From contig JAGCPB010000003.1 of NCBI GenBank assembly GCA_017642425.1, forward strand, positions 1-55,831: a stretch of DNA of 55,831 nucleotides. The letters run 5' to 3'. The position numbers were made by a program, and so were the translations under genes. Under the pieces are notes generated by a model that saw only the letters and a list, made by a program, of their open reading frames with translations, had not been told where the DNA came from and ran no database searches. The stretch comes from Bacteroidaceae bacterium (GTDB lineage Bacteria > Bacteroidota > Bacteroidia > Bacteroidales > Bacteroidaceae). Below are positions 8,132-23,167 of the stretch, piece after piece; the stretch's first letter is position 1; each line of letters starts with the position of its first letter.

Positions 8132-10275
8132 ATTATCGCTCAAGCGAAATAACCCGTACCGTTCACAATGCGGCATTGGCTGTTCTTGCCATTGCCGCAT
8201 TGTCGGGTTGTGCGGCCATAGGCAATCCTGACGGCGGTCCGTATGACGAGACACCACCCAGAATCACTTCCAGTCACCCTGACAACGGAGCCACGGGAGT
8301 GAACACCCGCAAGGTAACAATTGATTTCAACGAGTTCATAAAACTGGAGAACGCCAATGAGAAGGTCGTAATATCTCCACCACAGACAGAGCAGCCTGAG
8401 ATTAAGGTAACCGGCAAGAAAATACATGTAGAACTGTTTGATTCACTCAAACCCAACACCACCTACTCCATTGATTTTGCCGATGGCATTGTTGACAACA
8501 ATGAGGGTAATCCTTTGGGTGACTACTGCTTCCGTTTCAGTACCGGCGATGCCATAGACACTCTTGAGGTATCGGGCTACGTACTTGACGCCGAGAACCT
8601 GGAGCCTGTAAAGGGAATGACAGTAGGTCTTCACAGTGACCTTTCTGATTCGGCCTTCATGACCAAACCCTTTGAACGGGTATCACGCACCGATGCAAGC
8701 GGCCACTTTACCATTCGCGGCATAGCTCCGGGAACCTACCGCATCTATGCAGTGATGGATATGGACCAGACATTCAGCTACTCTCAGCGCAATGAGAAAA
8801 TAGCATGGCTGGATACTCTTGTCGTCCCTTCATCTGAACAAAGATTCAGGACTGACACCATATTCACGGATCAGGGTACAGTAGACACCACTTTGCTTGT
8901 CTCATATATACAGTACCTTCCAAATGACCTTACCCTTCTGGCTTTCACTCCTAATCCGGTCATTCAGTATCTGAGCGGATCAGACCGTTCCACTCATGAG
9001 AAGTTCACCGTCAGGTTTGCCTTACCGCTGGACTCCATGCCCATAGTCAAGGGTATCAACTTTGACGAGACAGACTCTTACATACTGCAGCACAGCGCCC
9101 GTTATGACACGCTCACATTCTGGATGAAAGACACCACTGTCTATTATATGGACACTCTGGCTGTCAGCATCACATATCTGGGATCCGATACGGCAGGCGT
9201 GCTGGTTCCTATGACCGATACCCTTAAACTGGTTCCCAAGAAAAGCCGCGAGAAAATCCTTAAGGAAGAGGCAAAAAAGGCCGAGGATGCCCAGAAAGAG
9301 CTTGAAAAGCAGTTGCGCCGTCTGGAGCGTGCCGGAGACTCCCTGGGTATAGTAAAACTCCTGGAACCCAAGACCAAGTTCCTCAACGCCCGGCTGACAT
9401 CTGGAGGAGCCATGAGTCTGTATGCCAATGTAAACCTGACATTCACAGAACCGGTAACATTCCTGTCAGATAGCGCCATACATATCTACCAGCAAGCGGA
9501 TACCGTATGGCTACCCATCCCGTTTGAGATAGAGCAAAATGAACTGGATATACTCAGATATGACATCTATGCCGAATGGAAGCCTGAACAGACATTCAAG
9601 ATAACGGTTGATTCGGCCAGCATACAGGGTCTTTACGGCCTGTATAATGACGGCATGGAATCAACACTCAAGTTCAATGCCCTTAAACAATACAGCACGC
9701 TGACTGTAAATGTGGCCAATCCCAAACCCGGCTATACCGTGCGCCTGCACAACAACGGCGGTAAGATCGTCAGGACAGGCCGGTTGGAGAACGGAAGCGT
9801 GGATTTCTTCCTTTTACAGCCCGCCACCTATTTTGTCTCAATGTTTGATGATGCAAACATGAACGGCAAGTGGGACACAGGCGAATATGAAGAGAAGCGT
9901 CAGGCAGAAAGTGTCTGGTACATAAAGAGAAGTTGGGTACTAAAACAGGACTGGACCCATGAGACAGAGCCCTGGAACGTAAATGAAATGCCGCTCACCC
10001 AGCAGAAGCCGGATGAACTCAACAAGAACAAATCCAACAAGAAAACGGTCGATGTCCATAAGAAGAACGTAGACCGTCTTGAAAAGAAAGCCAAACAAGC
10101 TGAATCCGAGAAAAACAAGAAGGAACGTAAACGCAAGGAGCGCAAGGAACGCCGTGAAAAGAACAAGGAGAAATACCGTGCCATCAGGGCCAATGCCAAA
10201 GCAAAGGCTAAAGCCAACTCAGAGCCCGCAGTTGACACTCCAGACATTCAGGAAGTTGAGACCCCAAATGAGTGA
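8128..10275 (+). CDS. Large Ig-like lipoprotein with Lys-rich C-terminus, TTG start
   Basis: 715 residues. No in-frame ATG precedes the lipobox; the only plausible start overlapping fabF is TTG at 8128. The signal ends in LSGC with Cys28 as lipidated residue. An SbsA/Big_5-type Ig-like domain spans about 42-145 (PPRITSSHPDNG, NTTYSIDF). A carboxypeptidase-regulatory-like beta domain follows at about 150-215. A charged helical stretch lies near 375-405, and an extremely Lys/Arg/Glu-rich helix near 630-695. Known relatives are outer-membrane lipoproteins of unknown function in Bacteroidota. The last 57 bases also encode the C-terminus of the opposite-strand peptidase. Confidence 0.8.
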   Translation: MNYRSSEITRTVHNAALAVLAIAALSGCAAIGNPDGGPYDETPPRITSSHPDNGATGVNTRKVTIDFNEFIKLENANEKVVISPPQTEQPEIKVTGKKIHVELFDSLKPNTTYSIDFADGIVDNNEGNPLGDYCFRFSTGDAIDTLEVSGYVLDAENLEPVKGMTVGLHSDLSDSAFMTKPFERVSRTDASGHFTIRGIAPGTYRIYAVMDMDQTFSYSQRNEKIAWLDTLVVPSSEQRFRTDTIFTDQGTVDTTLLVSYIQYLPNDLTLLAFTPNPVIQYLSGSDRSTHEKFTVRFALPLDSMPIVKGINFDETDSYILQHSARYDTLTFWMKDTTVYYMDTLAVSITYLGSDTAGVLVPMTDTLKLVPKKSREKILKEEAKKAEDAQKELEKQLRRLERAGDSLGIVKLLEPKTKFLNARLTSGGAMSLYANVNLTFTEPVTFLSDSAIHIYQQADTVWLPIPFEIEQNELDILRYDIYAEWKPEQTFKITVDSASIQGLYGLYNDGMESTLKFNALKQYSTLTVNVANPKPGYTVRLHNNGGKIVRTGRLENGSVDFFLLQPATYFVSMFDDANMNGKWDTGEYEEKRQAESVWYIKRSWVLKQDWTHETEPWNVNEMPLTQQKPDELNKNKSNKKTVDVHKKNVDRLEKKAKQAESEKNKKERKRKERKERREKNKEKYRAIRANAKAKAKANSEPAVDTPDIQEVETPNE

Positions 10276-11970
10276 CAAGTCATAATCACTCAGGCCCTGG
10301 ACCATAAGCCTTTCTGTAAGCGTCACAAACCAGGATGCATCCTCCAGACCCGGAAGTCCGCCTCCGCCGTCAAAATCAGATCCTATACCCACATGCTCTA
10401 CGCCCATGACATCTATCATATGCATGATATGGTGCACGGCGTCATCCACAGTTGCATTACCTCCTTTCTTAAGGAATCCACTGTAAAGGCATACCTGTGC
10501 TACACCTCCGGATGCAGCGAGAGCACGCATCTGCTCATCGGTCAGGTTGCGGGTATGGTCACACAGCGCACGGCTGGATGAATGTGAACATATTATGGGT
10601 TTGCTGCTGCACTCCAACGCATCCCAGAAACTTTTCTCCGATGCATGTGACAGGTCAACCATCATACCCACCCTGTTCATGCGCTCCACCACACGCCTGC
10701 CAAACTCCGACAGGCCGTTATGCTCATGATTGCCCTTGTGAGAGTCACAGATATCATTGTCCCCGTTATGGCATAGCGTCATGTATGCCACGCCACGGCT
10801 ACGGAACCTGTCCACATTATCAATATCCAGACCAACGGCATATCCGTTCTCAATACCTTTAACAACAGACTTAACCCCTTTGAACTTGTTCTGCCACAGT
10901 TCCTGCGGGGCAGTTGCAATGGCAACATGTCCGTTGCACTCACCAATACGCTCGTCAATAAGATTGAGCAGACGGTCAGCCTTGGCGGTGGCAGCCTTCA
11001 ATGATTCCGAATCACGTTCATGCTGTTTAAGATAAGCCACCATGAAACTTGCGTCCAGACGTCCGGCAGTCATCTTGTGCAGGTCCACCAACATATCAGG
11101 GTTCTTCATATAGAAATGAGCCCCCTTGTCAAAGAACATGGGGCTGTCACAATGACTGTCAAGTATAATTGTTTTGCTATGCAATCCCTTTGCGCGACTA
11201 AAAAGTCTGGCTTGATCTATAAACCAGCCGAATATGGGCATCATGTTCCGGTCATTCTCAAGAATAAAACATTCCGGATGCCACTGAACGCCTAGAATGG
11301 GGCGGAAAGCCGTAGATTCCATACCCTCTATAATCCCGTCGGGAGCCATAGCCGTAACACGGAATCCTTCCGGAACCTCCTTTACCGCCTGATGGTGGAA
11401 AGAGTTGACGGCAAGTGTCTCCTTACCGAATAACCCGTATAACATAGAATCCTTTTCCAGCCGGACCTCATGTGACGGCAGACCGCGGGCAATAGTCTGT
11501 GAGTGCTCAATGCAAGGCCTGTCATGCTGCGTCTTAATATCCTGATACAACTTGCCACCCAATGCGGCAGTCAGCACCTGGATACCACGGCAAATACCCA
11601 GCACAGGTATCTGACGGTCCACTGCCAGATGAACCAGAAGCAATTCCTGGGCGTCGCGACGAGGATTGACAGAGACGCAGTCCAGCGGTTCTTCGCGCAG
11701 GTATTCCGGGTCAATATCAGCTCCACCTGATAGAACTATCCCGTCAAGCGTATCAAGCAGTGATACAAGCGCCTGCTCATTGTCATAAGAAGGTATCACC
11801 ACCGGTGTACCTCCGGCTTCAAGCACTGACATATAGTATGCCTGGGCAAGCGTACAGTCGCCGTCCCTGAAATTTCCGCTTATGCCAATAACGGGAGCGT
11901 GCCAGTCCAGCACCTCCGTACCCGAATCCATACGCTTGCACAAGGATTCAAGCTGATCTGCCTTAGTCAT
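10219..11970 (-). CDS. Fusion of C26 glutamine amidotransferase-like peptidase and M19 dipeptidase
   Basis: 583 residues in two parts. Residues about 24-255 are a class I glutamine-amidotransferase/peptidase C26 domain of the gamma-Glu hydrolase type, with nucleophile Cys127 (LGICRGIQ) and His231/Glu233 (QWHPE). Residues about 266-583 are a membrane-dipeptidase (M19) domain: the zinc motif DSHCDSP has His273 and Asp275, and MVDLSHAS and IICSHSSSR supply later metal-site His residues. No signal peptide is visible, so it is probably cytoplasmic. Together the halves could remove gamma-glutamyl and dipeptide bonds from imported peptides; this is inference. It starts one base after the Lrp gene ends. 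Its conserved end NFLNVW lies inside the overlap with the lipoprotein gene. Confidence 0.88.
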   Translation of the reverse strand: MTKADQLESLCKRMDSGTEVLDWHAPVIGISGNFRDGDCTLAQAYYMSVLEAGGTPVVIPSYDNEQALVSLLDTLDGIVLSGGADIDPEYLREEPLDCVSVNPRRDAQELLLVHLAVDRQIPVLGICRGIQVLTAALGGKLYQDIKTQHDRPCIEHSQTIARGLPSHEVRLEKDSMLYGLFGKETLAVNSFHHQAVKEVPEGFRVTAMAPDGIIEGMESTAFRPILGVQWHPECFILENDRNMMPIFGWFIDQARLFSRAKGLHSKTIILDSHCDSPMFFDKGAHFYMKNPDMLVDLHKMTAGRLDASFMVAYLKQHERDSESLKAATAKADRLLNLIDERIGECNGHVAIATAPQELWQNKFKGVKSVVKGIENGYAVGLDIDNVDRFRSRGVAYMTLCHNGDNDICDSHKGNHEHNGLSEFGRRVVERMNRVGMMVDLSHASEKSFWDALECSSKPIICSHSSSRALCDHTRNLTDEQMRALAASGGVAQVCLYSGFLKKGGNATVDDAVHHIMHMIDVMGVEHVGIGSDFDGGGGLPGLEDASWFVTLTERLMVQGLSDYDLSLIWGLNFLNVWSVNCGL

Positions 11971-12602: not shown

Positions 12603-13451
12603 TTACTTGATACTTACAAGCTCAACCTCAAATATAAGAGTTGAATAAGGCTTGATGTCACCACCGGCACCCTGCTCGCCATAACCCAGGTCATACGGGA
12701 TAAACAATCTGTACTTGTCACCAACGCTCATAAGCTGGAGACCCTCTGTCCAACCCTTGATAACGCTACCCAGATTAAGAGTAACAGGAGTGGTTGACTC
12801 GTCAAATACGGTACCGTCAATAAGCTCACCGCGGTAACGTACCTCAACGTCGCTGTCAGCTGTAGGCTTGGGACCGCCGTCACCCAGCTTGATAACCTGA
12901 TAGAGCAGACCACTTGCAGTCTTTACAACGCCATCCTCCTTGGCTTTTTTCTCCAGATATGCGGCATTCTCCTCCTTAACCTTGTCATACTGACGCTGGC
13001 TCAGATACTCGTAAAGACGGTTTGAAGTCTCATCGGCCTCATCAAAAGTCATAATCTTCCAGTTATCAAGCATACCATCACGGAAACCGCTTATGTAATT
13101 GCTCTTGTTGAATGTTTCACCCGGGCCAAAAAGATTCTCTGCCAGACCTACGTATGCCTGGGTCATCTCCTGGCAACCAACCTCAAAACCAAGAGCGTAT
13201 GCCAACTTAGCCATATCATCAGGATTCTGGGCTGCATCAAGGAAACCTTTCACAAATGACTTGATTGTAACAGAGTCAACGATATCGTACGGGAGCTGGT
13301 TCTTGTAAACGCGAACAGCGCGACCCATACCGATAGAGTAAGAGATAGTGTCCTTTACATCATTCATAACAACTTTACCTGTGCCCACGCCACCGCATGA
13401 ACCAAGTACTGCAATGGCCATACCAGCCACCAGAACATTCAGTTTTTTCAT
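12603..13451 (-). CDS. FKBP-type peptidyl-prolyl isomerase lipoprotein
   Basis: 282 residues. Lipoprotein signal with LGSC (Cys19). Residues about 30-160 are the helical dimerisation region (FKBP_N), and about 175-282 the FKBP catalytic domain (VEVRYRGELIDGTVFDES, then PYDLGYGEQGAGG). It resembles FkpA/Mip proteins, which catalyse proline isomerisation and act as chaperones for envelope proteins. As a lipoprotein it should face the periplasm or outer membrane. A single-gene unit with its own promoter match (13496-13503) and terminator. Confidence 0.93.
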   Translation of the reverse strand: MKKLNVLVAGMAIAVLGSCGGVGTGKVVMNDVKDTISYSIGMGRAVRVYKNQLPYDIVDSVTIKSFVKGFLDAAQNPDDMAKLAYALGFEVGCQEMTQAYVGLAENLFGPGETFNKSNYISGFRDGMLDNWKIMTFDEADETSNRLYEYLSQRQYDKVKEENAAYLEKKAKEDGVVKTASGLLYQVIKLGDGGPKPTADSDVEVRYRGELIDGTVFDESTTPVTLNLGSVIKGWTEGLQLMSVGDKYRLFIPYDLGYGEQGAGGDIKPYSTLIFEVELVSIK

Positions 13452-13567: not shown

Positions 13568-13597
13568 TTTGGCTTTAAGATAAATACACTACTTTTG
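13568..13597 (+). promoter_or_regulatory. Promoter for the TPR-HTH regulator
   Basis: TTTG at 13568-13571, an 18-base spacer, then TACTTTTG at 13590-13597: one of the two best full matches to the Bacteroidales -33/-7 promoter in this window. The start codon at 13615 leaves a leader of only about a dozen bases. Confidence 0.7.
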
Positions 13598-13614: not shown

Positions 13615-15180
13615 ATGAGAAGAACTGCCATAACCAAATTCATTACAACACAACTAATAACCGTTATCACTGTTATGGCAGTGGTATGCTCTTGCGTTGA
13701 CTCCCGTATGACTCAGGCCGAGGCGTTTTTGGAGACAGACCCCGCAGCGGCAGATTCCATACTAACTTCCATGCCTGAACCCCAGTCCCGCCGTGACCGT
13801 GCCTGGTATGCAGTCCTTAAGACTCAGGCAGACTACAAGCTTTATAAACCTATTACCTCTGACAGCCTTATACTTACCGCAACAGATTACTACGGAACAC
13901 ATCGCAAGAACTACCGCTCCGCTATGGCATGGTACTCACAGGGGTGTGTGTATTTAGAAATGAATGATGATGTTGCAGCAACAGAATCATATCTTAGGGC
14001 CATTGATTTGTTTCCTGACACTTTAGTAAGATACTATGTCCTCACAGAAGAGCGTTTAGCAAAATGTTATTTAAACAAATACATGTATGACGAATCGCTT
14101 TCTCTTTATTACTGTTGTAGGAATAATGCTATTAGAGATGTGGATTCAACGTTGTTGTCATATGTGGATTATCAGATTGCCTTGATAAAAATATTTAATC
14201 AACAGTTCCAGGGCTTAGATACTGCTTTTTTGAAGTTATATCATGATAAAAACCTTTCTGATTTCTACAGGGGAGACTGTCTTCTTGAACTGGCAAAATG
14301 TCATATTTGGTATACTTGTCTATATGATTCTGCATTATTTTATTTGGACAAATACAGGGATTACGTTAAAAAGCCACTACAAGGTATTTATTACAATCTA
14401 ACCGGTAACGTCTATTATAGTATGGATAATATCGATAAAGCATACTCCTGTTATTTGTCATCAATTGAGAAGAATAGTGATATATATACTCTAACCAATT
14501 CTTATAAAAACTTAAGTGAAATCAGTTTGTCAAAAGGGAATTCAATAGAAGCTTTTGAATATTTGAAATTATATACGCAAGGCCTTGATTCAATAAGGAT
14601 ACTGAATAATGCAAATGAGATAGCCATGATTAAAATTGCAAATAATGCGGATAAAGAATTATATAAAAGAAAGGAATTCCGCATAAGGACAACAATAATG
14701 TGTGTTGCAGTATTTCTAATTATTCTTTTATTGCTCTATGGCTTATATCTTAATTATACAAATACCATTAAGCAAAGGTATATCAGATTCTGTGACAATG
14801 TGTGGACAACCATAAACTCTCCTCTTAAAGAAAACAGTACAGAATCAGATTTACTCTCTTACGGAAAGACAAAATATCTGAATAGCCCATCACATCATAT
14901 ACTGTTTGATAATAAACGCGATTCGTTAATCCTAAATAAGGATGCCAAAGCAGCCGTACTACATGACTTGAATATTGCGTTTTCAGATCTAATCGTAAGG
15001 ATAATAAGCAGAGATTCCTCTATTAATAACAGGGACATTCAAGTTTGTCTATTATGTTATTTAGGTGTAGATAATCGTACTGTTTGTGATATAATGAATA
15101 TTACTGGTGATAATTTCAGGAAGATAAAGAGTAGAATGAAGGATAAACTCTTAGATACTTATCATCTGTATTATAGATAA
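13615..15180 (+). CDS. Membrane-anchored TPR regulator with C-terminal HTH (DUF6377-like)
   Basis: 521 residues. A signal/lipoprotein-like N-terminus (VMAVVCSC) is followed by a helical repeat region rich in Tyr/Ala pairs, consistent with TPRs over about 35-350 (WYSQGCVYLEMNDDVAATES). One strong membrane segment is at about 359-380. A cytoplasmic tail ends in an HTH-like region near 469-521 (RDIQVCLLCYLGVDNRTVCD). Bacteroidales have many such one-protein sensors with periplasmic TPRs and a cytoplasmic HTH. It precedes and probably controls the secreted block that begins 142 bases later. Its 3' half is AT-rich with rare codons, unlike the flanking housekeeping genes, which suggests accessory DNA. 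Confidence 0.72.
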   Translation: MRRTAITKFITTQLITVITVMAVVCSCVDSRMTQAEAFLETDPAAADSILTSMPEPQSRRDRAWYAVLKTQADYKLYKPITSDSLILTATDYYGTHRKNYRSAMAWYSQGCVYLEMNDDVAATESYLRAIDLFPDTLVRYYVLTEERLAKCYLNKYMYDESLSLYYCCRNNAIRDVDSTLLSYVDYQIALIKIFNQQFQGLDTAFLKLYHDKNLSDFYRGDCLLELAKCHIWYTCLYDSALFYLDKYRDYVKKPLQGIYYNLTGNVYYSMDNIDKAYSCYLSSIEKNSDIYTLTNSYKNLSEISLSKGNSIEAFEYLKLYTQGLDSIRILNNANEIAMIKIANNADKELYKRKEFRIRTTIMCVAVFLIILLLLYGLYLNYTNTIKQRYIRFCDNVWTTINSPLKENSTESDLLSYGKTKYLNSPSHHILFDNKRDSLILNKDAKAAVLHDLNIAFSDLIVRIISRDSSINNRDIQVCLLCYLGVDNRTVCDIMNITGDNFRKIKSRMKDKLLDTYHLYYR

Positions 15181-15262
15181 GACATGATTATGTTCATTAG
15201 GAATGGTGCGATTCTTAAGCTAACTGATTGATTTATAGTCGTGAATTTTTGTCACAATTAAT

Positions 15263-15295
15263 TTTGTAATTTGTCTTTTTTTATCTATATATTTG
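15263..15295 (+). promoter_or_regulatory. Promoter of the secreted-protein block
   Basis: TTTG at 15263-15266, a 21-base spacer, then TATATTTG at 15288-15295, a full -7 match. It lies 28 bases before the ATG at 15323 and rules out a TTG start at 15293. It gives the five-gene block a promoter separate from the regulator gene. Confidence 0.65.
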
Positions 15296-15322
15296 GGTCC
15301 TCAAACAATTAATTTATATTTT

Positions 15323-15682
15323 ATGAGGACAAAATTCTATTCTTTGTTAACAATCTTGGCAACAGTATCAATACTGTCTTTTGCCAATGATGAGATTCCA
15401 TTGAGACTGGTTTCAGTACCAGAACCGGGAGAGCCTACTAATCCCCGTTCAATTGAGTGTGAGGTAACGGCATCTATTGATAGCCAAGTACTAACCGTAT
15501 CGTTCAGTGAGCTAACAGCATCACAGATTGTGATAACTGATTCAGCAAACCTGACCGTATTCAACCAGAACTATGCACCCGCAAATAGTATTCAATCTAA
15601 CCTTTCAACGTTACCTTCTGGATCGTACATACTGAACGTATATGCATTAGGCTACTGGTGGTACGGATATTTTAATTTATAA
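15323..15682 (+). CDS. Small secreted DUF3244-like protein
   Basis: 119 residues from the ATG at 15323. Signal peptide about 1-20 (LLTILATVSILSFA), mature start NDEIPLRLV. The rest fits the DUF3244 pattern: a short polar N-terminus, then an Ig-like beta sandwich (TASIDSQVLTVSF, SQIVITDSANLTVFNQNY, LPSGSYILNVYALG). DUF3244 proteins are small exported proteins found beside secreted proteases and other surface proteins in Bacteroidales; function unknown. First gene of the block, 13 bases before the next. Confidence 0.7.
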   Translation: MRTKFYSLLTILATVSILSFANDEIPLRLVSVPEPGEPTNPRSIECEVTASIDSQVLTVSFSELTASQIVITDSANLTVFNQNYAPANSIQSNLSTLPSGSYILNVYALGYWWYGYFNL

Positions 15683-15695
15683 TTCTGTTGTTATA

Positions 15696-16910
15696 ATGAA
15701 AAAAGGTATTATTACGTGTATTATGTGCGTAATGTATTCTTATACTAATGCACAATTGTATGTGGATTCAAACGGAAACACAACAATAGGTGATTATTTT
15801 AACACCAATACCTCCTTAAGTGTCAATTCGTCTGCCAATTCATTAAAATCATACTATTTGACTGAATTGAATACCAATTCCCATTTTTGTGCATTAGGTA
15901 TCAACAACTCCACTCATGTACAATTACCAACCAATGTTTCTCATGAGTTTTATGGGATTCAACTTGGCTGTGAGAACAATGCAAATAGTGCAACATACGG
16001 AATCACCACATGCGTTTCAAGTGAAGGACCTTTCAGTACAGGCAGAGCATATGGCCTTCTTGCCGAAGCAGGACGTTCCACACCCGGATGGAACTTTGGC
16101 ATCTGTACTTCTGTTACCGGTGAAAATAATGGAGCCGGATTATTCGCGTCATCTGGAAGCTATCCAGAAGGATTTAACGTAAATGGACGGTGGGCTGGTT
16201 ACTTTGACGGAAATGTTAATGTAGTAGGCAATCTATCTGCTTCTTCATATACATGTTCGTCAGACTATCGTCTAAAGGAAAATATTCGTCAGATTGACAA
16301 TGGAAGTCTAGACAAGATTCTGGGAATGAATGTAGTAAAATACAAAATTAAGAACACAGAGGTTGACATGGGAGACACAGCAAAAACTGTTCATTACAAA
16401 TATCCAGAGGACTCACCGTTGCTAAAAAAAGACCATTATGGAGTTATCGCTCAGGAATTGAGAGAAATATATCCAGAACTGGTCAATGAGGGCGAAGATG
16501 GTTACCTGTCTGTGAATTACATTGAACTGGTGCCTATTCTCATCAAGTCAATACAAGAACTCGCATTAAAAGTTGAAGCATTGAAGAATGAATCTCCAAG
16601 GGCCGTACTACGAGGGAATGGAACTACGAGCATAAATCAAGGAATAAATCAAACTGTTCTCTTCCAGAATGACCCCAACCCGTTTACAGAAAAAACAACC
16701 ATCAAGTGCATTATTCCCAATAGTGTCAAGAGCGCAGTCTTATATATTTATGACATGAACGGCCGCCAGATAGACAGTATGCCTATTCCTGAAAGGGAAA
16801 ATGTAACCATTACTATTGAAGGCAGCAGGCTCGATGCAGGAATGTACATGTATTCACTTGTAACTGACGGCAATCTTGTTGATACCAAGAGAATGATTCT
16901 CACAAAATAA
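15696..16910 (+). CDS. Secreted protein with S74 chaperone domain and T9SS C-terminal domain
   Basis: 404 residues. Signal peptide with predicted cleavage TNA|Q. Residues about 20-180 are an Asn/Ser/Gly-rich beta region typical of tail-fibre-like stalks. At 188-196 is SSDYRLKEN, the start of a peptidase S74 intramolecular chaperone domain (to about 290, with HYGVIAQELREIYPELV). Ser189 and Lys194 have the five-residue spacing of the known Ser-Lys self-cleavage dyad. Residues about 322-404 form a T9SS type A sorting domain (FQNDPNPFTEKTTI, LYIYDMNGRQID, LDAGMYMYSL, KRMILTK). It is predicted to be exported by Sec, then through the outer membrane by T9SS. Self-cleavage would separate the stalk from the sorting domain. 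Confidence 0.85.
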   Translation: MKKGIITCIMCVMYSYTNAQLYVDSNGNTTIGDYFNTNTSLSVNSSANSLKSYYLTELNTNSHFCALGINNSTHVQLPTNVSHEFYGIQLGCENNANSATYGITTCVSSEGPFSTGRAYGLLAEAGRSTPGWNFGICTSVTGENNGAGLFASSGSYPEGFNVNGRWAGYFDGNVNVVGNLSASSYTCSSDYRLKENIRQIDNGSLDKILGMNVVKYKIKNTEVDMGDTAKTVHYKYPEDSPLLKKDHYGVIAQELREIYPELVNEGEDGYLSVNYIELVPILIKSIQELALKVEALKNESPRAVLRGNGTTSINQGINQTVLFQNDPNPFTEKTTIKCIIPNSVKSAVLYIYDMNGRQIDSMPIPERENVTITIEGSRLDAGMYMYSLVTDGNLVDTKRMILTK

Positions 16911-16917
16911 AAAGGCA

Positions 16918-18984
16918 ATGAACAGAGCGGTATATAAAAGATTGCTGTCATTGATATGTCTGTCATTGTCATGCACTATCTGTTTTGCTACAGACAATGA
17001 TGAAAGCCCCACATCTGACTCATCGCTAAACACGGTTAGTGTGCAAACTGCTAACAATGGCACCATAACAATTGAAATATCAGTACAAGATTTTGACACT
17101 ATTCCTGTATTGATAGGTAATGATAAATACTATATGGTAATGATGCCTGAAGGGCATAGTACACTTCAGAGAGGGTATCCAGACCTCCCTGTAATTACCA
17201 AGAGTTTCATCATACCTGAAAACAGCAGCTATGTTATTAGGGTAGTAGATGATGACTATAGTGATTACACCATACCTGTCTCCCCGTCAAAGGGCTCCAT
17301 ACTGCGCAAGGTGAATTGGGACGATGTCTCCTATGTATTCTCTGATACATATTCACAGAACTCCTTTTATCCGTCAGAATCTGTAATCAGCGGTGATTCA
17401 TATTATATAAGGGATATACAGGGAGGCAATATCCAGATATGCCCTTTCAAGTATAACCCTATCACTAACACATTACGTGTTTATAATTATCTTAAGATTG
17501 AGATATCCTTCTCTGATTATATGGGCAGAGGATCTTTGACAAATGAACTCAAAACCGTAAACAAACATTTCTATCCTCTTGCCAAGCATAGATTCATAAA
17601 CTCAGACAACTATATACGTAATGAATCAGAGTCAGTACAGCAAGGAGAGCCGTTGCGTTCACTTGATGAAACTACCGCCAAGATGCTGGTTGTTTGTTGT
17701 GACTCTTTTGTTACAGAGATGAGGAACTTTATAATACACAAAAACAACCTTGGTATACCTACTACGTTGGTTAAAATGAGTGATGTAGGTACAACGGCAA
17801 ATCAGTTGAAAACATTTATCCAGAATGCATATAATAATGACAATGACTTGACATATGTGCTGTTGGTTGGCGATGCTCCTCAGATTCCTACTCCATTGAT
17901 AGTATACACAGAATATACGAAGATATGCATAGAAGGTACTAATGACAGTCTAATAGTACCTTATGATGCCTATGGCGGAGCAGATCCTTTATATTCACTT
18001 GTTTCGGGAAATGACAAATACCCCGATATTGTTATAGGAAGATTCTCGGCAAGTACAAAGAGCGAAGTCAGAACGATGGTTGATAAGGTAATCAATTATG
18101 AGAATCAATTGACTTCAAACTGGTTCCATATCGGAATGGGAATAGCCAGTAATCTGCAAAGTAAGACTTCTGGTACACATGGTTATTCAGAGGCTGATTG
18201 GCAACATATGAGAAATATCAGAAGTAAGTTACTTTCAGGGCATTATACAAGTGTATCGGAGTTTTATGATAATTCACATGGTTTATTGGATTCGCCAGGA
18301 AACCCAAGTAATGATATGATTGCCAATTCCGTTAACTCAGGAGTTTCACTCATAAATTATGTAGGACATGGAGATGTTGACAGATGGGTTACCAGTGATT
18401 TTAGTAATAATGATGTTCAAAATCTAATGAATCAAGATAAATTGCCGTTTATCTTTTCAGCTTCATGTTTGGTAGGTCAGTTCAATAATGATACAACACA
18501 ATGTTTTGCAGAAACATGGCAAAAAGCAAAAATGGCGAATACAGGAGATCCCACTGGATGTATTGGGTTTTATGGATCTTCAATAACACAAAGTTGGTCT
18601 GAACCTATGAGCGCCCAAGACAGTTTCAATAGGCAGTTGATAGATGAAGACTTTGTAACTATAGGCATGCTTTGCTATAGTGCAGGATGTGATATGATGA
18701 GTAATTGTTTGTCAGGTGAATATCCAGATATTGCAGAAGAGATGTTTGATGCATGGATTTTATTTGGTGATCCATCACTCCATATTATTCCTAACAATAA
18801 TGTTGGAAATACATTATTTCTTGAGGGTGATATAGTAAATGATTCCACTTATACAAAGGATTTTGTTGATGTTCGTAATGCTACGATAAAAAATAATACA
18901 GACATTATCATTGATTGTCAACAAAATACTATCTTTAATGGCGAGTTTAGAGTTGAAGAAGGTTCTACACTATCAGTATGGTAA
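16918..18984 (+). CDS. Gingipain-family (C25) cysteine peptidase
   Basis: 688 residues. Signal peptide about 1-23. Residues about 40-230 resemble the C25 propeptide (YYMVMMPEGHSTLQRGYPDL). The catalytic domain spans about 240-610. His484 in NYVGHGD and Cys517 in SASCLVGQFN fit the gingipain His-Cys dyad. C25 peptidases are secreted cysteine endopeptidases. After the catalytic domain a short beta stack ends in FNGEFRVEEGSTLSVW; no T9SS domain of the usual type is present. It starts seven bases after the S74 gene. Substrate specificity cannot be told from sequence. Confidence 0.86.
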   Translation: MNRAVYKRLLSLICLSLSCTICFATDNDESPTSDSSLNTVSVQTANNGTITIEISVQDFDTIPVLIGNDKYYMVMMPEGHSTLQRGYPDLPVITKSFIIPENSSYVIRVVDDDYSDYTIPVSPSKGSILRKVNWDDVSYVFSDTYSQNSFYPSESVISGDSYYIRDIQGGNIQICPFKYNPITNTLRVYNYLKIEISFSDYMGRGSLTNELKTVNKHFYPLAKHRFINSDNYIRNESESVQQGEPLRSLDETTAKMLVVCCDSFVTEMRNFIIHKNNLGIPTTLVKMSDVGTTANQLKTFIQNAYNNDNDLTYVLLVGDAPQIPTPLIVYTEYTKICIEGTNDSLIVPYDAYGGADPLYSLVSGNDKYPDIVIGRFSASTKSEVRTMVDKVINYENQLTSNWFHIGMGIASNLQSKTSGTHGYSEADWQHMRNIRSKLLSGHYTSVSEFYDNSHGLLDSPGNPSNDMIANSVNSGVSLINYVGHGDVDRWVTSDFSNNDVQNLMNQDKLPFIFSASCLVGQFNNDTTQCFAETWQKAKMANTGDPTGCIGFYGSSITQSWSEPMSAQDSFNRQLIDEDFVTIGMLCYSAGCDMMSNCLSGEYPDIAEEMFDAWILFGDPSLHIIPNNNVGNTLFLEGDIVNDSTYTKDFVDVRNATIKNNTDIIIDCQQNTIFNGEFRVEEGSTLSVW

Positions 18985-19000
18985 GTAAAAAAATTCAATT

Positions 19001-19858
19001 ATGAGAAAGATAATCACAACGTTTGCCCTTGCATTAATGGTTCTCCTTCAAGCCAACGCCCAGGAGCAATGGAATGCCGTAAAGGTGTTTGATCTGGATG
19101 TTGATGATGCCCGCAGCGTGTACAGTATGTACATAGATTCAGTGGGGACAACTGATGGTGAAGCTATATTCTGTTTTCAACAATTTCTCTCTACTGACAC
19201 ACTTAAACTAATCAAAACAGATCTTTCAGGCAATGTGATTGAAGTAACAGATAATCCTTATCCTGATTTTTCAGTTTTGAATGGTGATACATTGATTTGT
19301 CGTAACAATAAAGTTGTGATTAATGCGTCAAGTGGAGATACTATTTATAAGCACTTTGCATATTATTGTCTACGCATTGCTGCCTCCTTTTCTCAAGCAT
19401 ATGTGTATATTGAGAATCCTTACAGAAATGGGCGTCCGTCATATGTCATTAATTGTTTAAATGAAAAAAGGATACATGAAACCTTTATGTTCGGCGCATT
19501 ATGTTGCAGTAAATCTGAGTTGTATATAATAGAACGTGATGATGACGGTCAGGGCTTGTTGATTACTTTTGATGAAAAAACGGGTGAAACTATCAAAACA
19601 ATTCATACAGTAAAAGAACCAAACGGAATAGCTGTATACAGAGGTACGCTATATGTATATTCTCAAACAGACAAAGCAGTATATAGGCTGGAATCGGCGG
19701 GAGGTACAACAGCAGTCAAATCCAACCATGCTCAAGTTCAGCAAACGGTTTATTACAATCTGTTGGGCGAAGAAACAGATTCACCGTCAGGCCTTACAAT
19801 AGTGGTAAAGAGCTTCAGTGACGGTAGCATAAAAACAGAAAAGCAACTATTCCGGTAA
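19001..19858 (+). CDS. Secreted beta-propeller-like protein with short C-terminal tail
   Basis: 285 residues. Signal peptide with cleavage QANA|Q. The body (about 25-240) is beta-rich with recurring patterns such as GLLITFDEKTGETIKTI and PNGIAVYRGTLYVYSQ, like blades of a propeller. I do not recognise a precise family. Residues 251-285 form a tail (YYNLLGEE, SPSGLTIVV, KTEKQL) shared with the next gene product and reminiscent of the last strands of a T9SS or related sorting domain. AT-rich coding. It lies 16 bases after the C25 gene. Confidence 0.6.
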   Translation: MRKIITTFALALMVLLQANAQEQWNAVKVFDLDVDDARSVYSMYIDSVGTTDGEAIFCFQQFLSTDTLKLIKTDLSGNVIEVTDNPYPDFSVLNGDTLICRNNKVVINASSGDTIYKHFAYYCLRIAASFSQAYVYIENPYRNGRPSYVINCLNEKRIHETFMFGALCCSKSELYIIERDDDGQGLLITFDEKTGETIKTIHTVKEPNGIAVYRGTLYVYSQTDKAVYRLESAGGTTAVKSNHAQVQQTVYYNLLGEETDSPSGLTIVVKSFSDGSIKTEKQLFR

Positions 19859-19895
19859 AAATTAATTAATCGTTTTTTTATAGATCCATCCGCAT

Positions 19896-21338
19896 ATGAA
19901 ACGTTCAATCAATCAAAAAACAGCATTAGCGACAATGCTATTAGCTTTGCCACTACTGGCAATAGGACAGGAGCACGTTGTTTCTCCATCTTTTGTGGAT
20001 ATTGACAATCTATTCATTTATTCATACTCATATAGTCCAGGTTCTCTTAATGAAAGAGGACCTATCGGCAAGGTTTATCTAAGCGTTATATCTGATGAAA
20101 TATTCATAAAGAAGGAAGCGGATGTTAATCAGCAGAAAATTGAAGATGCTGTATTAAGCCTGATTCCTTCGGCCCAGATTAGTTGGGTCAAAGATGATGT
20201 CTGCACAGTCATAGGCAACAAGCAGTCTATTGAAGCCAATGTAAATGCCTTGTTAGATAATGATGACATAATAAGTGTAAGGCCGGCATATATAAGGAGA
20301 GTATATAAAGACTTTATGGAACTGTATCCGGTAGAACAAGTTAAAATATACGGCTTTACCGATGATATCTATGTAGCACAAGAGTATGAAAACGATGATG
20401 AGGTTGATGCACTCATGGCATCATTGGGCGTCCAGTTTCAATCAGAACCATATGGTATGCTAAGACAACTTCGTGTTTTCGTGCCTAAAGAATCTGATAT
20501 CATTGCAATCGCAAACAGTCTGTATGAGACCGGCTTTTTCAGTGACTCACAACCCATGTTGTATGGAACTGTAAGAAATCTTGATTCCGAGCCTTTGGAT
20601 AGATCCGGATTGGATTTTGTTTATGATTCTAACGGCGAAAAAGTCTATCTATATAAATCTCCCGGTCAGTTTATGATTACAAAAGATAAAGAGACGGATA
20701 AAGCCGATATAGAAGCCATCATAAACAAATATCTGACTGACCCATATTACGTTTGGGTGGCTAATAACCGTTGCCAAATAGAAACAGACGAATCATTGGT
20801 TGATGATGCTATAGCCAATATCAGAAAAGAAGAACTGGTTGTCAGCGCAAACCGGAGTTATCTGAAGCAATCAGATTATGAGTGGACGTTACAGAATGGA
20901 ACAGATTATCCCAGTCTCTTCAATTTTAACCAAGAAATAATGGTATCATTAAAAGATGATGTCTCTCAGTCTGTAAAAGACAGCTTGCTGAACGCCTTTG
21001 ATCTGACCGTGATAAAGGAGCGGGAGATGTATGATAAATGGGCTGCACTTAAAACAGATGATGTAATAATAGTAAGTCAAAAACTCTATGAGAGCGGCTA
21101 TTTCAAAGGGGTTGAATTGGATTGGATTACCGGTTATAAGATTCATCAAGCTTTCGGTTCAGTAACCACTGGTATCAAGAGACCAGAAATAAACGAAACC
21201 GCCAATATAGTAAGTGAAAGCTACTATGACCTACTAGGCCGCCGTATAGATACACCTTCTGGTATGACCATAGTGGTAATCCGTTACAGCAACGGCACAG
21301 TCCGCACGGAAAAGAAGCTGTTAAAGGGTGAGAATTAA
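19896..21338 (+). CDS. Secreted protein of duplicated peptidase-prodomain-like modules, no protease domain
   Basis: 480 residues. Signal peptide with predicted cleavage AIG|Q. The body is an A-B-A'-B' repeat. A (about 56-145) and A' (about 247-335) share KVYL, an IxxK strand, an IEA helix and WV...C. B (about 148-226) and B' (about 337-420) share the closing signature LYETGFF / LYESGYF preceded by a DII helix. That signature is typical of regions N-terminal to subtilisin-family (S8) peptidases in Bacteroidota, but no S8 catalytic Asp, His or Ser motif follows. The tail at 443-480 (YYDLLGRR, TPSGMTIVV, TEKKL) matches the previous protein. A stand-alone inhibitor, chaperone or binding partner is possible; this is inference. 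Confidence 0.6.
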   Translation: MKRSINQKTALATMLLALPLLAIGQEHVVSPSFVDIDNLFIYSYSYSPGSLNERGPIGKVYLSVISDEIFIKKEADVNQQKIEDAVLSLIPSAQISWVKDDVCTVIGNKQSIEANVNALLDNDDIISVRPAYIRRVYKDFMELYPVEQVKIYGFTDDIYVAQEYENDDEVDALMASLGVQFQSEPYGMLRQLRVFVPKESDIIAIANSLYETGFFSDSQPMLYGTVRNLDSEPLDRSGLDFVYDSNGEKVYLYKSPGQFMITKDKETDKADIEAIINKYLTDPYYVWVANNRCQIETDESLVDDAIANIRKEELVVSANRSYLKQSDYEWTLQNGTDYPSLFNFNQEIMVSLKDDVSQSVKDSLLNAFDLTVIKEREMYDKWAALKTDDVIIVSQKLYESGYFKGVELDWITGYKIHQAFGSVTTGIKRPEINETANIVSESYYDLLGRRIDTPSGMTIVVIRYSNGTVRTEKKLLKGEN

Positions 21339-21365: not shown

Positions 21366-21411
21366 CGCCCCTTAAGGAGAAATAATACGTTCCTTAAGGG
21401 GCGCATTTTTT
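21366..21411 (+). terminator. Terminator of the secreted-protein block
   Basis: A perfect 13-bp GC-rich stem (21366-21378 with 21391-21403), 12-base loop, then CATTTTTTT. A T-rich run also precedes it, so it could act in both directions. It is the strongest terminator in the window and closes the accessory island. Confidence 0.9.
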
Positions 21412-21502: not shown

Positions 21503-23167
21503 ATGGAAATCTACTGCATAAACAACAAGAAGACGGAGAGTTTCAATCCCGGGGTATCATTTTCTGAGATATTCACAACATTGGGCGTGACGCTTAAAAG
21601 CAGTCCCGTGTGCGTGACGGCAAATGGCAGGCTTACCGATATGGAGGCCCGTGTATATGAGGACTGCGATGTGGAGTTTCTTGATGCCACATCAAGTTTA
21701 GGTGCACGCAGCTACTCTCAGGGGCTGGTGTTTGTGCTGGCCAAGGCTGTGGCTGAACTCTTTCCGGGCGGAATGATAAGAGTATCAAACGCTGTTTCCA
21801 AGGGTTTCTACTGCCCGGTTGAGATAGGCCGTGAACTGACAGAGGATGATGTAACTGTCATAAGCGAGCGCATGGGCAGCATTATAGGCCGCTCCATTCC
21901 GTTTGTCAAGCATACCGCCCACACCGCCGATGTTGCCGATATCATGGCAAAGGCAGGACGTGAGGATACGGCCCGTCTGCTGCGCAGCATAGGTTCCATT
22001 TACACTTCATACTACACGCTTGACGACATGCCGGATTGGTTCTTTGGCATTCTGCCCCCGCATACCGGATGCCTAAAGGTATTTGGACTGGAGATGATGC
22101 CCGGCGGCGTCCTGGTGCGCGTACCTAACCGCACCAACCCTGACCAGCTGGAGCCCATGGTGCGCCAGGACAAGATGTTCAGCATGTTCAAGGAGCATCA
22201 TGACTGGATGGGAATCTTAGGATTCTCCACTCTGGGAGAACTTAATGAGGCCATTGCTAAGGGACAGACCAACATGATCATAAACGTGGCCGAGGCCCTG
22301 CAGTCACAGAAGATTGTGCATATTGCCGACCAGATTGTGGCACGCCGCAACGAGGGTAAGGGGTTGAAACTGGTTATGGTTTCAGGTCCCTCATCATCGG
22401 GCAAAACCACGTTCAGCAAGCGTCTTATGGTGCAGCTTATGGCCCACGGACTTACTCCAAAGGTTATATCACTTGATGACTATTTCCTGGACCGTGACCA
22501 CACTCCGCTGGATGAGAACGGTGAGCATGACTTTGAGTCACTCTACGCCATAGACCTGCCCTATTTCAATGAGCAGCTTAAGGATTTGCTGGCAGGCAAG
22601 ACCATCCAGCCGCCCACATTTAATTTCAAGAAGGGCGGCATACGTGAGTTCACAGACCCGGCCATCACACTTGGCGAGAATGACATACTGCTTATAGAAG
22701 GCATTCATGCGCTCAATCCGGACCTTATGCCCGATATTCCGGCCGACAGCCGTTTCCTGATATATGTTTCTGCACTTACAAGCATACGCATAGACCAGCA
22801 CAATTATATTCCCACAACCGATAACCGTCTGCTGCGCCGCATTACGCGTGACCACAAGTACCGCAGCTACTCTGCAGTGGATACTATCGGACGCTGGCCG
22901 TCAGTGCGTGCAGGTGAGGAAAAGTGGATATTCCCATATCAGGAGAATGCCGACGCCATGTTCAACTCTGCCATGATGTTTGAGATTGCGGTCATTAAGG
23001 ACATGGTGGCTCCGCTGCTTGAGGAGGTGCCGGAAAACCGTCCGGAGTATGCCAAGGCATGCCAGATGAAGGATTTCCTCAAGCTGTTCCGTACCATACC
23101 CAGCCAGAACCTGCCACCCACATCATTGGTGCGTGAATTTATAGGCGGCAGCAGTTTCCACTATTGA
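21503..23167 (+). CDS. Nucleoside (uridine-type) kinase with tRNA-synthetase-like N-terminus
   Basis: 554 residues, the usual length for this Bacteroidota enzyme. The N-terminus has a TGS-like segment (to about 65) and a threonyl-tRNA-synthetase-type second additional domain (about 70-170). The C-terminal half is a uridine kinase/phosphoribulokinase-type P-loop fold with Walker A GPSSSGKTT at 295-303. It is expected to phosphorylate nucleosides in salvage; the role of the synthetase-like part is not known. It ends 12 bases before rpoN. Confidence 0.9.
   Translation: MEIYCINNKKTESFNPGVSFSEIFTTLGVTLKSSPVCVTANGRLTDMEARVYEDCDVEFLDATSSLGARSYSQGLVFVLAKAVAELFPGGMIRVSNAVSKGFYCPVEIGRELTEDDVTVISERMGSIIGRSIPFVKHTAHTADVADIMAKAGREDTARLLRSIGSIYTSYYTLDDMPDWFFGILPPHTGCLKVFGLEMMPGGVLVRVPNRTNPDQLEPMVRQDKMFSMFKEHHDWMGILGFSTLGELNEAIAKGQTNMIINVAEALQSQKIVHIADQIVARRNEGKGLKLVMVSGPSSSGKTTFSKRLMVQLMAHGLTPKVISLDDYFLDRDHTPLDENGEHDFESLYAIDLPYFNEQLKDLLAGKTIQPPTFNFKKGGIREFTDPAITLGENDILLIEGIHALNPDLMPDIPADSRFLIYVSALTSIRIDQHNYIPTTDNRLLRRITRDHKYRSYSAVDTIGRWPSVRAGEEKWIFPYQENADAMFNSAMMFEIAVIKDMVAPLLEEVPENRPEYAKACQMKDFLKLFRTIPSQNLPPTSLVREFIGGSSFHY

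What the first reader, a model, noticed from the sequence alone, without database searches (positions are those of the whole stretch)
13615..21338. AT-rich secreted-protein island with its own membrane regulator
A TPR-membrane-HTH regulator with a strong promoter is followed by five closely spaced genes (gaps of 7 to 37 bases), all with signal peptides, behind a second promoter and ended by the strongest terminator in the window. Base composition and codon use become AT-rich part-way through the regulator and return to normal at the nucleoside kinase. Products: DUF3244, an S74-T9SS protein, a C25 peptidase, a propeller-like protein and a duplicated prodomain-like protein. This looks like a regulated surface-proteolysis or adhesion locus that I cannot match to a described system.
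Basis: partly seen in the sequence, partly recalled or inferred. Interest (0 to 1): 0.82.

Follow-up and report, generated by a model that had tools for sequence, protein, structure and literature searches.

The report
Protease operon with borrowed secretion tag
This looks like a regulated operon for a secreted gingipain-like protease in an uncultured gut bacterium, and in related bacteria the same kind of neighbouring protein often sits beside a secreted enzyme and, where checked for this protease family, carries the secretion tag that the enzyme lacks, a possible undescribed way to bring enzymes to the cell surface.

Summary
The island is real and is one member of a modular family. The regulator (REG) is paralogous: matches in 31 of 37 genomes of the genus, eight here. 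In the genus, 14 of 16 S74 and 21 of 28 DUF3244 matches lie downstream of a REG match. The slot after S74 holds C25 here and S8 in five congeneric contigs. Among fetched pieces from across the order, 26 of 34 assessable S74 genes have a hydrolase among the next two genes: C25, S8, C1, C10, M12/M43 or GH16. None of nine S74-associated C25s has a type IX C-terminal domain; six carry another short C-terminal module. Of 27 complete C25s with no S74 in at least 1.3 kb upstream, 25 end in that domain and none has the module (6/0 against 0/25, p 1e-6). The domain is on the S74 partner. I infer that S74 brings the tagless enzyme out, with DUF3244 a candidate inhibitor and gene 6, a double subtilase-propeptide-like protein, another. 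At 30 congeneric copies of the site, 18 are empty and one (G005) holds an S8-plus-serpin version. Mechanism untested; structure prediction could not be run.

The parts
12603..13451 (-). FKBP-type isomerase, left flank of the insertion site
   Evidence: Pfam; lies 110-216 nt from the kinase in 18 of 30 loci read, the window counted, i.e. the site is empty there
13568..13597 (+). candidate promoter of the regulator (TTTG-N-TAnnTTTG)
   Evidence: not above chance on its own
13615..15180 (+). REG: TPR repeats, one membrane segment and a C-terminal helix-turn-helix part (the last two by eye and a weak family match)
   Evidence: paralogous family with matches in 31 of 37 genomes of the genus
15239..15257 (+). 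candidate operator (TCGTGAATTTTTGTCACAA), 14 of 19 letters as in a palindrome with perfect 9-nt arms before the DUF3244 gene of the closest REG relative (L119)
   Evidence: read; inference only
15263..15295 (+). candidate promoter of the secreted-protein operon
   Evidence: not above chance on its own
15323..15682 (+). DUF3244 protein, 119 aa; candidate protease inhibitor or folding helper
   Evidence: Pfam E 1e-10; Bacteroides BT2221 = BtiZ is listed as DUF3244
15696..16910 (+). S74 protein (S74 domain about 16260-16484, type IX C-terminal domain about 16674-16895): proposed dedicated partner/carrier
16918..18984 (+). C25 gingipain-like protease with its propeptide and no type IX C-terminal domain
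18799..18978 (+). C-terminal beta-rich tail of the protease (residues 628-687), shared with S74-paired hydrolases of other folds
   Evidence: leave-family-out profile, E 3e-5
19001..19858 (+). gene 5, weakly propeller-like; its homologue is fused to a gene-6 homologue elsewhere in this genome and in G005
19896..21338 (+). gene 6: duplicated subtilase-propeptide-like protein without a catalytic domain; candidate inhibitor
21366..21411 (+). intrinsic terminator, 13-bp stem
21503..23167 (+). nucleoside-kinase-like gene, right flank of the insertion site

Best explanation
The island is a regulated, secreted-protease operon built from exchangeable parts. A membrane-anchored TPR regulator (REG) senses something in the periplasm and, through its cytoplasmic helix-turn-helix part, controls a promoter just downstream (inferred). 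That promoter drives first DUF3244, a small exported protein of the kind proposed as a protease inhibitor in Bacteroides; then an S74 protein; then the C25 protease and two accessory proteins. The C25 protease has a propeptide, the catalytic His and Cys, and the aspartate that in gingipain R selects arginine (shown by alignment; the roles of these residues are recalled), but no type IX secretion C-terminal domain. That domain is on the S74 partner next to it (shown). I infer that the S74 protein, whose domain forms self-cleaving trimers in phage tail fibres and in myelin regulatory factor (recalled), is the type IX substrate and surface scaffold, and that the protease binds it, probably by its C-terminal tail, and is exported or displayed with it. 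Gene 6, two copies of a subtilase propeptide without an enzyme, is best read as an inhibitor aimed at subtilases such as those in sister loci.
For: Shared neighbourhood: 14 of 16 S74 and 21 of 28 DUF3244 matches in 37 genomes of the genus lie downstream of a REG hit on the same strand; several misses are at contig ends. Order-wide pairing in the pieces fetched: 25 of 34 assessable S74 genes have a family-matched hydrolase among the next two genes, 26 with L206 (C25). Position: +1 in 13 of 34, +2 in 6 of 31, against 2 of 151 at -8 to -1. Families: C25, S8, C1, C10, M12B/M43, GH16. Secretion-domain rule for complete C25 frames with at least 1.3 kb of upstream DNA: 6 tail and 0 CTD with S74, 0 tail and 25 CTD without, Fisher p 1e-6 (0 and 35, p 2e-7, if frames with shorter upstream DNA are kept). 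Pfam shows the CTD in 10 of 10 controls tested and none in eight S74-associated C25s. A tail profile trained without the tested enzyme family reaches E 0.05 or better in 20 of 30 S74-neighbour proteins, among them C25, S8, M12/M43, C10 and GH16 enzymes. SprA and PorU are present in this genome. Gene 6 aligns with the propeptides of the S8 proteases in L215 and L224 at 27-28%. Operator hint: exact 6-mers 11 nt apart behind REG in 14 of 33 loci, against 13 of 118 control intergenics, p 1e-4.
Against: No experiment and no structural model: all 11 attempts met a full queue. The tail resembles NCBIfam GCX_COOH (above the cut-off only in L196, weak in L226 and L232, not reported for the other seven of the ten scanned), which might be a sorting signal in its own right, so S74 need not carry anything. 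8 of 34 assessable S74 genes have no family-matched hydrolase in the next two genes. The tail was absent or above E 0.05 in 10 of 30 S74-neighbour proteins (L199, L202, L208, L214, L215, L218, L219, L221, L223, L230) and absent in L225. In 9 of the 26 cases the hydrolase is the second gene and a protein of 138-471 aa stands between; three of those proteins were tested and matched the type IX domain, one below the cut-off, so S74 is not the only possible carrier. The CTD-in-trans rule was tested for C25 alone. The window lacks a clean 11-nt repeat. DUF3244 also heads cassettes without a recognised protease, such as RHS in L142. The S8-propeptide logic of gene 6 does not match the C25 enzyme beside it, and the other four sequences of that alignment are only 15-20% identical.
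Confidence: 0.5

Rival explanations
1. The C-terminal beta tail is itself an autonomous sorting or anchoring signal. The S74 protein is a separate surface product (adhesin or substrate-binding trimer) that is co-expressed but does not carry the enzyme.
For: The tail resembles GCX_COOH, the '3-coathanger stack' domain of NCBIfam, and occurs on enzymes of several folds, as a sorting module would.
Against: None of the 25 CTD-bearing C25s without S74 in 1.3 kb upstream carries the tail; in C25s tail and S74 go together. L206 and L225 have S74 and no CTD; L225 has no tail either, and the L206 end shows none by eye.
Confidence: 0.3
2. S74, or a CTD protein between S74 and enzyme, is a maturation factor: the enzyme leaves by another route and is folded, activated or protected by S74 (chaperone-like), with the CTD used only to localise S74.
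For: S74 domains are intramolecular chaperones in the families hit by the profile (tail fibres, myelin regulatory factor, function recalled). Thornton et al. mention a folding role for inhibitor-like partners of such proteases (passages).
Against: It does not explain why the CTD is missing from the C25 enzyme when S74 is present.
Confidence: 0.15
3. An ordinary horizontally acquired AT-rich secreted-protein island. The pairing reflects common descent of one operon and loss of a dispensable CTD.
For: Low GC; empty site in 18 of 30 loci read; truncated copies in this genome and in G017.
Against: Unrelated enzyme folds fill the same slot in different families, which single descent of one operon does not give.
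Confidence: 0.05

Closest known systems
Gingipain R (RgpB, Porphyromonas gingivalis), peptidase family C25
   Same: C25 domain, propeptide, catalytic His/Cys and the S1 aspartate align (4ief E 3e-51, 1cvr E 8e-51, propeptide 1e-21; residue roles recalled).
   Different: No type IX C-terminal domain on the enzyme; preceded by an S74 partner that has one.
Bacteroides C10 proteases with staphostatin-like inhibitors (Btp/Bti)
   Same: Small exported protein co-encoded with a secreted cysteine protease; BT2221 is named BtiZ (PMC3462683, passages read) and listed as DUF3244 (PMC10434189, table row read). This genome has a REG-DUF3244-C10-serpin locus (L112).
   Different: Here the enzyme is C25 and an S74 type IX protein stands between; the passages read mention no S74.
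Tannerella forsythia KLIKK protease/potempin pairs
   Same: Inhibitor gene directly before a secreted protease, in a type IX-secreting bacterium (PMC7296668, passages read).
   Different: KLIKK proteases carry their own nearly identical C-terminal domain (PMC4404884, start of abstract in the listing); here it is on a partner.
S74 / intramolecular chaperone auto-processing domains (phage tail fibres, myelin regulatory factor)
   Same: S74 domain by Pfam and profile hits to tail fibres 8jov and 6f45 and to myelin regulatory factor 7dc3.
   Different: Fused to a type IX C-terminal domain and encoded beside an enzyme rather than being a fibre or transcription factor.

Membership tests
Peptidase family C25 (gingipain type) | C25 catalytic domain and propeptide | tested here: met
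   PF01364 E 6e-58, PF08126 E 5e-26
Peptidase family C25 (gingipain type) | catalytic His and Cys; arginine-selecting Asp and Trp | tested here: met
   alignment to RgpB; residue roles and numbers recalled, activity not tested
Type IX secreted gingipain | type IX C-terminal domain on the protease | tested here: not met
   no Por_Secre_tail in the protease at E up to 1; none by the session's own profile
Type IX type A substrate (S74 protein) | C-terminal sorting domain, in a genome with SprA and PorU | tested here: met
   TIGR04183 E 3e-8; SprA and PorU
Self-cleaving S74 chaperone domain | S74 domain with SD.RLK motif | tested here: met
   PF13884; S189, D190, R192, L193, K194 invariant in 7 sequences; of these only D190 is invariant and R192 nearly so in 18; motif role recalled
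Self-cleaving S74 chaperone domain | trimerisation and self-cleavage | not testable with these tools
   needs protein
Bti/DUF3244 protease inhibitor | DUF3244 domain, exported, next to a secreted protease | tested here: inconclusive
   domain E 1e-10, but the C25 gene is two genes downstream and the Bacteroides proteins are described as candidate inhibitors in the passages read
Subtilase propeptide (gene 6) | homology to propeptides of S8 proteases | tested here: met
   27-28% to L215/L224 propeptides, 15-20% to four others; BLAST hits to L081 and L124; no credible PDB match
Three-coathanger stack (GCX_COOH) tail | NCBIfam NF045639 match | tested here: inconclusive
   above cut-off only in L196; weak in L226 and L232; none in seven others; not reported for the window protease

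The most novel reading that the evidence does not exclude
Type IX secretion in trans: an S74 protein bearing the sorting domain acts as a dedicated, exchangeable carrier and scaffold for hydrolases of unrelated folds (C25, S8, C1, C10, M12/M43, GH16) that have lost or never had a sorting domain and dock by a common short C-terminal module. Each cassette is switched by its own paralogous TPR membrane regulator and is delivered with protease inhibitors (DUF3244, serpin, orphan subtilase propeptides).
Probability: 0.35. Interest if true: 0.92.

Novelty: new variant of a known kind. Interest (0 to 1): 0.78.

Why it matters
Type IX substrates are described as being targeted by a C-terminal domain of their own (PMC10994853, passages read). 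If a partner can supply that domain, annotation that looks for the domain on each protein misses a class of secreted enzymes, and a scaffold that accepts enzymes of several folds through a 60-residue tag would be a ready-made display system. My searches of an open-access library found no paper on the S74/type IX pairing (none; 15 of 57 listed, none with S74; 12 of 864 listed) and none on the tail. Two papers hold the word DUF3244; I read passages of one and did not open the other. The pairing also offers testable functions for DUF3244, S74 type IX proteins and orphan subtilase propeptides.

Tried and rejected
One-off recent acquisition: rejected, since sister islands and a truncated syntenic copy exist. 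Assembly or phase-variation reading, prompted by REG 5' fragments at contig ends: dropped, as I judged their number about what contig number predicts (rough estimate by hand, no call). Inverted repeats in the window: only one pair of 26 nt, which I took for chance. Autoregulation of REG by the 11-nt repeat: weak, 11 of 55 upstream stretches. DUF3244 against solved structures: no sequence match; gene 5 and gene 6 profiles: no credible match. L214 366-aa protein: looks caspase-like by eye, but has no Pfam or PDB support, so it is counted as a miss. L356 first appeared S74-adjacent, but the hit is the sorting domain only. SprA as a discriminating control has little power: 370 of 393 genomes have it. 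All 78 genomes with a match to the S74 protein are in the SprA-positive list, but many of those matches are to the sorting domain alone, which a type IX genome has anyway; p is 0.01 for the 20 listed negatives.

Choices that bear on counts: one search left out 13 C25 frames that run off their piece and 4 under 480 aa. In 10 of its 37 frames without S74 the upstream DNA held was under 1.3 kb, so S74 could not be excluded there; one search leaves these out (25 CTD, 2 neither: L332, and L336 with masked letters). L221 and L206 were judged separately and are not in that table; L225 is in it as 'neither'. The tail profile was trained on the six positives among others; the leave-family-out test is the independent check. 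The hydrolase profiles were trained on some of the enzymes counted there. One search counts only pieces that I had fetched (20 regions chosen by hand from the strongest order-wide matches, 80 named loci, genus loci), ten duplicate pieces dropped; its list of hydrolases was written by hand, and L198 and L219 were confirmed afterwards. Of its misses, L201 has a GH16 match below the cut-off, and not every downstream gene of L204, L209, L069 and L143 was scanned. The REG list holds the 75 hits of 124 bits or more.
Full report
WHAT IS THERE. The window is contig C86 of a 2.62-Mb, 87% complete genome with 36 congeners held; the nearest named records are MAGs labelled Bacteroidaceae or Bacteroidales, several from herbivore gut. 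Six co-directional genes lie between an FKBP isomerase and a nucleoside-kinase-like gene: REG, DUF3244, S74, C25, gene 5 and gene 6.

THE PROTEASE. Residues 43-202 are a C25 propeptide and 256-622 the C25 domain. In the alignment with gingipain R the catalytic His (NYVGHGD) and Cys (SASCLVG), and the aspartate and tryptophan that I recall as lining the arginine pocket, are kept, so an arginine-specific enzyme is predicted. The chain ends in a short tail that looks beta-rich and has no type IX C-terminal domain. No full-length relative was found in the 36 congeners; matches there are weak ones in long frames (PorU-like, by frame length) or short fragments.

THE SITE. The kinase was matched in 32 of 37 genomes and 30 of these loci, counting the window, were read. 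FKBP lies 110-216 nt from the kinase in 18 (empty site). Four have 0.7-1.0 kb between the two genes. Five show no FKBP in the piece. Three carry the system: the window, G017 (DUF3244, a 45-residue remnant of the C25 tail, gene 5) and G005. In G005 the FKBP-kinase interval holds REG, DUF3244, S74, an S8 subtilase, two further genes and a serpin, while the kinase protein is 94% identical to ours. So the same site holds the same head genes with a different protease. A second, decayed S74-C25-gene 5 unit sits beside sprA in this genome.

THE FAMILY OF CASSETTES. REG matches occur in 31 of 37 genomes of the genus, eight in this one. S74 matches lie downstream of a REG hit in 14 of 16 cases (one miss is a sorting-domain fragment), DUF3244 in 21 of 28. 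Behind REG and DUF3244, with or without S74, I found C25 (window), S8 (L215, L216, L218, L224; in L219 behind REG and S74), C10 with its own propeptide plus a serpin (L112), a cluster whose one scanned member is weakly transglutaminase-like (E 0.005, below the cut-off) and an RHS/SpvB-like protein (L142).

THE PAIRING ACROSS THE ORDER. A search of 393 genomes of the order and a named scan gave distant S74 relatives. Of 40 distinct S74 genes scoring over 200 bits in the pieces fetched, 6 lie at the end of their contig or piece. Among the other 34, 25 have a family-matched hydrolase in the next two same-strand genes, 26 with the C25 found later in L206; in 9 of the 26 it is the second gene. The families are C25, S8, C1, C10, M12B/M43 and GH16. 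Position profile in the named loci and the window: +1 13 of 34, +2 6 of 31, +3 2 of 23, +4 1 of 19, and 2 of 151 upstream. REG with S74 also occurs outside the genus: in L206 (another family of the order) and in MAGs labelled Marinilabiliaceae (L233) and Muribaculaceae (L234); L221, L223 and L243 have it too, but their genus is not known to me. In L206 the order is REG, S74, a second S74, C25 and serpin, with small genes between.

THE SECRETION-DOMAIN RULE. I fetched 20 short-frame and 20 long-frame C25 loci from the order, pooled them with S74-adjacent ones, and classified complete frames of at least 480 aa: S74 upstream, 6 tail, 0 CTD, 1 neither; no S74, 0 tail, 35 CTD, 2 neither (p 2e-7 for tail against CTD). 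On checking, 10 of those 37 had under 1.3 kb of upstream DNA; without them the table is 6/0 against 0/25 (p 1.4e-6). Ten controls scanned with Pfam all show Por_Secre_tail (the weakest, L321, E 0.0013, is below the curated cut-off). Two further S74-associated C25s, L221 and L206, show no CTD either, giving 0 of 9. With profiles trained without the tested enzyme family, the tail reaches E 0.05 or better (for 1000 sequences) in 20 of 30 S74-neighbour proteins, among them C25, S8, M12/M43, C10 and GH16 enzymes; it is weaker or absent in the other ten. The CTD profile finds none among the 30. Two proteins of L112, where there is no S74, show no tail.

GENES 5 AND 6. Gene 6 is a tandem duplication. 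Its second half aligns with the propeptides of the S8 enzymes that fill the slot in L215 and L224. Homologues of genes 5 and 6 are fused in this genome and in G005. An orphan propeptide pair is most simply an inhibitor; its predicted target is a subtilase, not the C25 enzyme next to it.

DUF3244. Thornton et al. 2012 (PMC3462683, passages read) name BT2221 btiZ, a candidate staphostatin-like inhibitor co-transcribed with the C10 gene btpZ; a table row in PMC10434189 lists BT2221 as DUF3244. The two together give DUF3244 a proposed role; inhibition was not shown in what I read.

REGULATION. Behind REG, exact 6-mers repeated 11 nt apart occur in 14 of 33 distinct intergenic stretches, against 2.0 +/- 1.4 in shuffles and 13 of 118 control intergenics (p 1.3e-4). 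The repeated core differs between loci, as expected if each paralogue has its own operator. The window has no clean instance; it has a partly conserved version of the palindrome in its nearest REG relative. Regulation is therefore plausible but not shown.

READING. Shown: conserved neighbourhood, exchange of enzyme folds in one slot, and, for C25, absence of the sorting domain on the enzyme when S74 (which bears it) is adjacent. Inferred: S74 carries or scaffolds the enzyme by way of the tail; DUF3244 and gene 6 inhibit; REG switches the operon. The strongest rival is that the tail is itself a sorting signal. Deleting S74 and following the enzyme would decide between them.

Noticed in passing
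L021 8323-14186 (G000:C53): Decayed second S74-C25-gene 5 unit beside sprA in the same genome; the frame of the S74 N-terminal part overlaps that of a C25 C-terminal fragment.
   Followed up: partly
L113 9258-10486, L138 5900-8457, L141 7238-10917: Pairs of two small proteins (clusters 19 and 20), one to three copies, behind REG paralogues.
   Followed up: no
L142 3630-10472 (G006:C23): A 2280-aa RHS/SpvB/FG-GAP protein behind REG and DUF3244, after a small protein with a sorting-domain-like end (by eye).
   Followed up: no
L214 9975-11075 (same as L070): 366-aa protein in the protease slot with caspase-like His-Gly and Cys motifs by eye, unmatched by Pfam and PDB sequence searches.
   Followed up: partly
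L202, L203, L208, L230, L235, L237: A roughly 300-aa protein stands between S74 and the next gene; the three tested (L203, L208, L230) match the sorting domain, L230 below the cut-off. A possible third component.
   Followed up: partly
L225 173-1396: S74 gene split by a stop codon in front of a C25 gene that lacks its usual end.
   Followed up: no
window 10219-11970 (-): A 583-aa frame that by eye joins a glutamine-amidotransferase-like half to a membrane-dipeptidase-like half.
   Followed up: no
G008, G009, G025 and G036 at the FKBP-kinase site: 0.7-1.0 kb between FKBP and kinase (GC 0.30-0.42 in the 700 nt before the kinase); the site may take other inserts.
   Followed up: no
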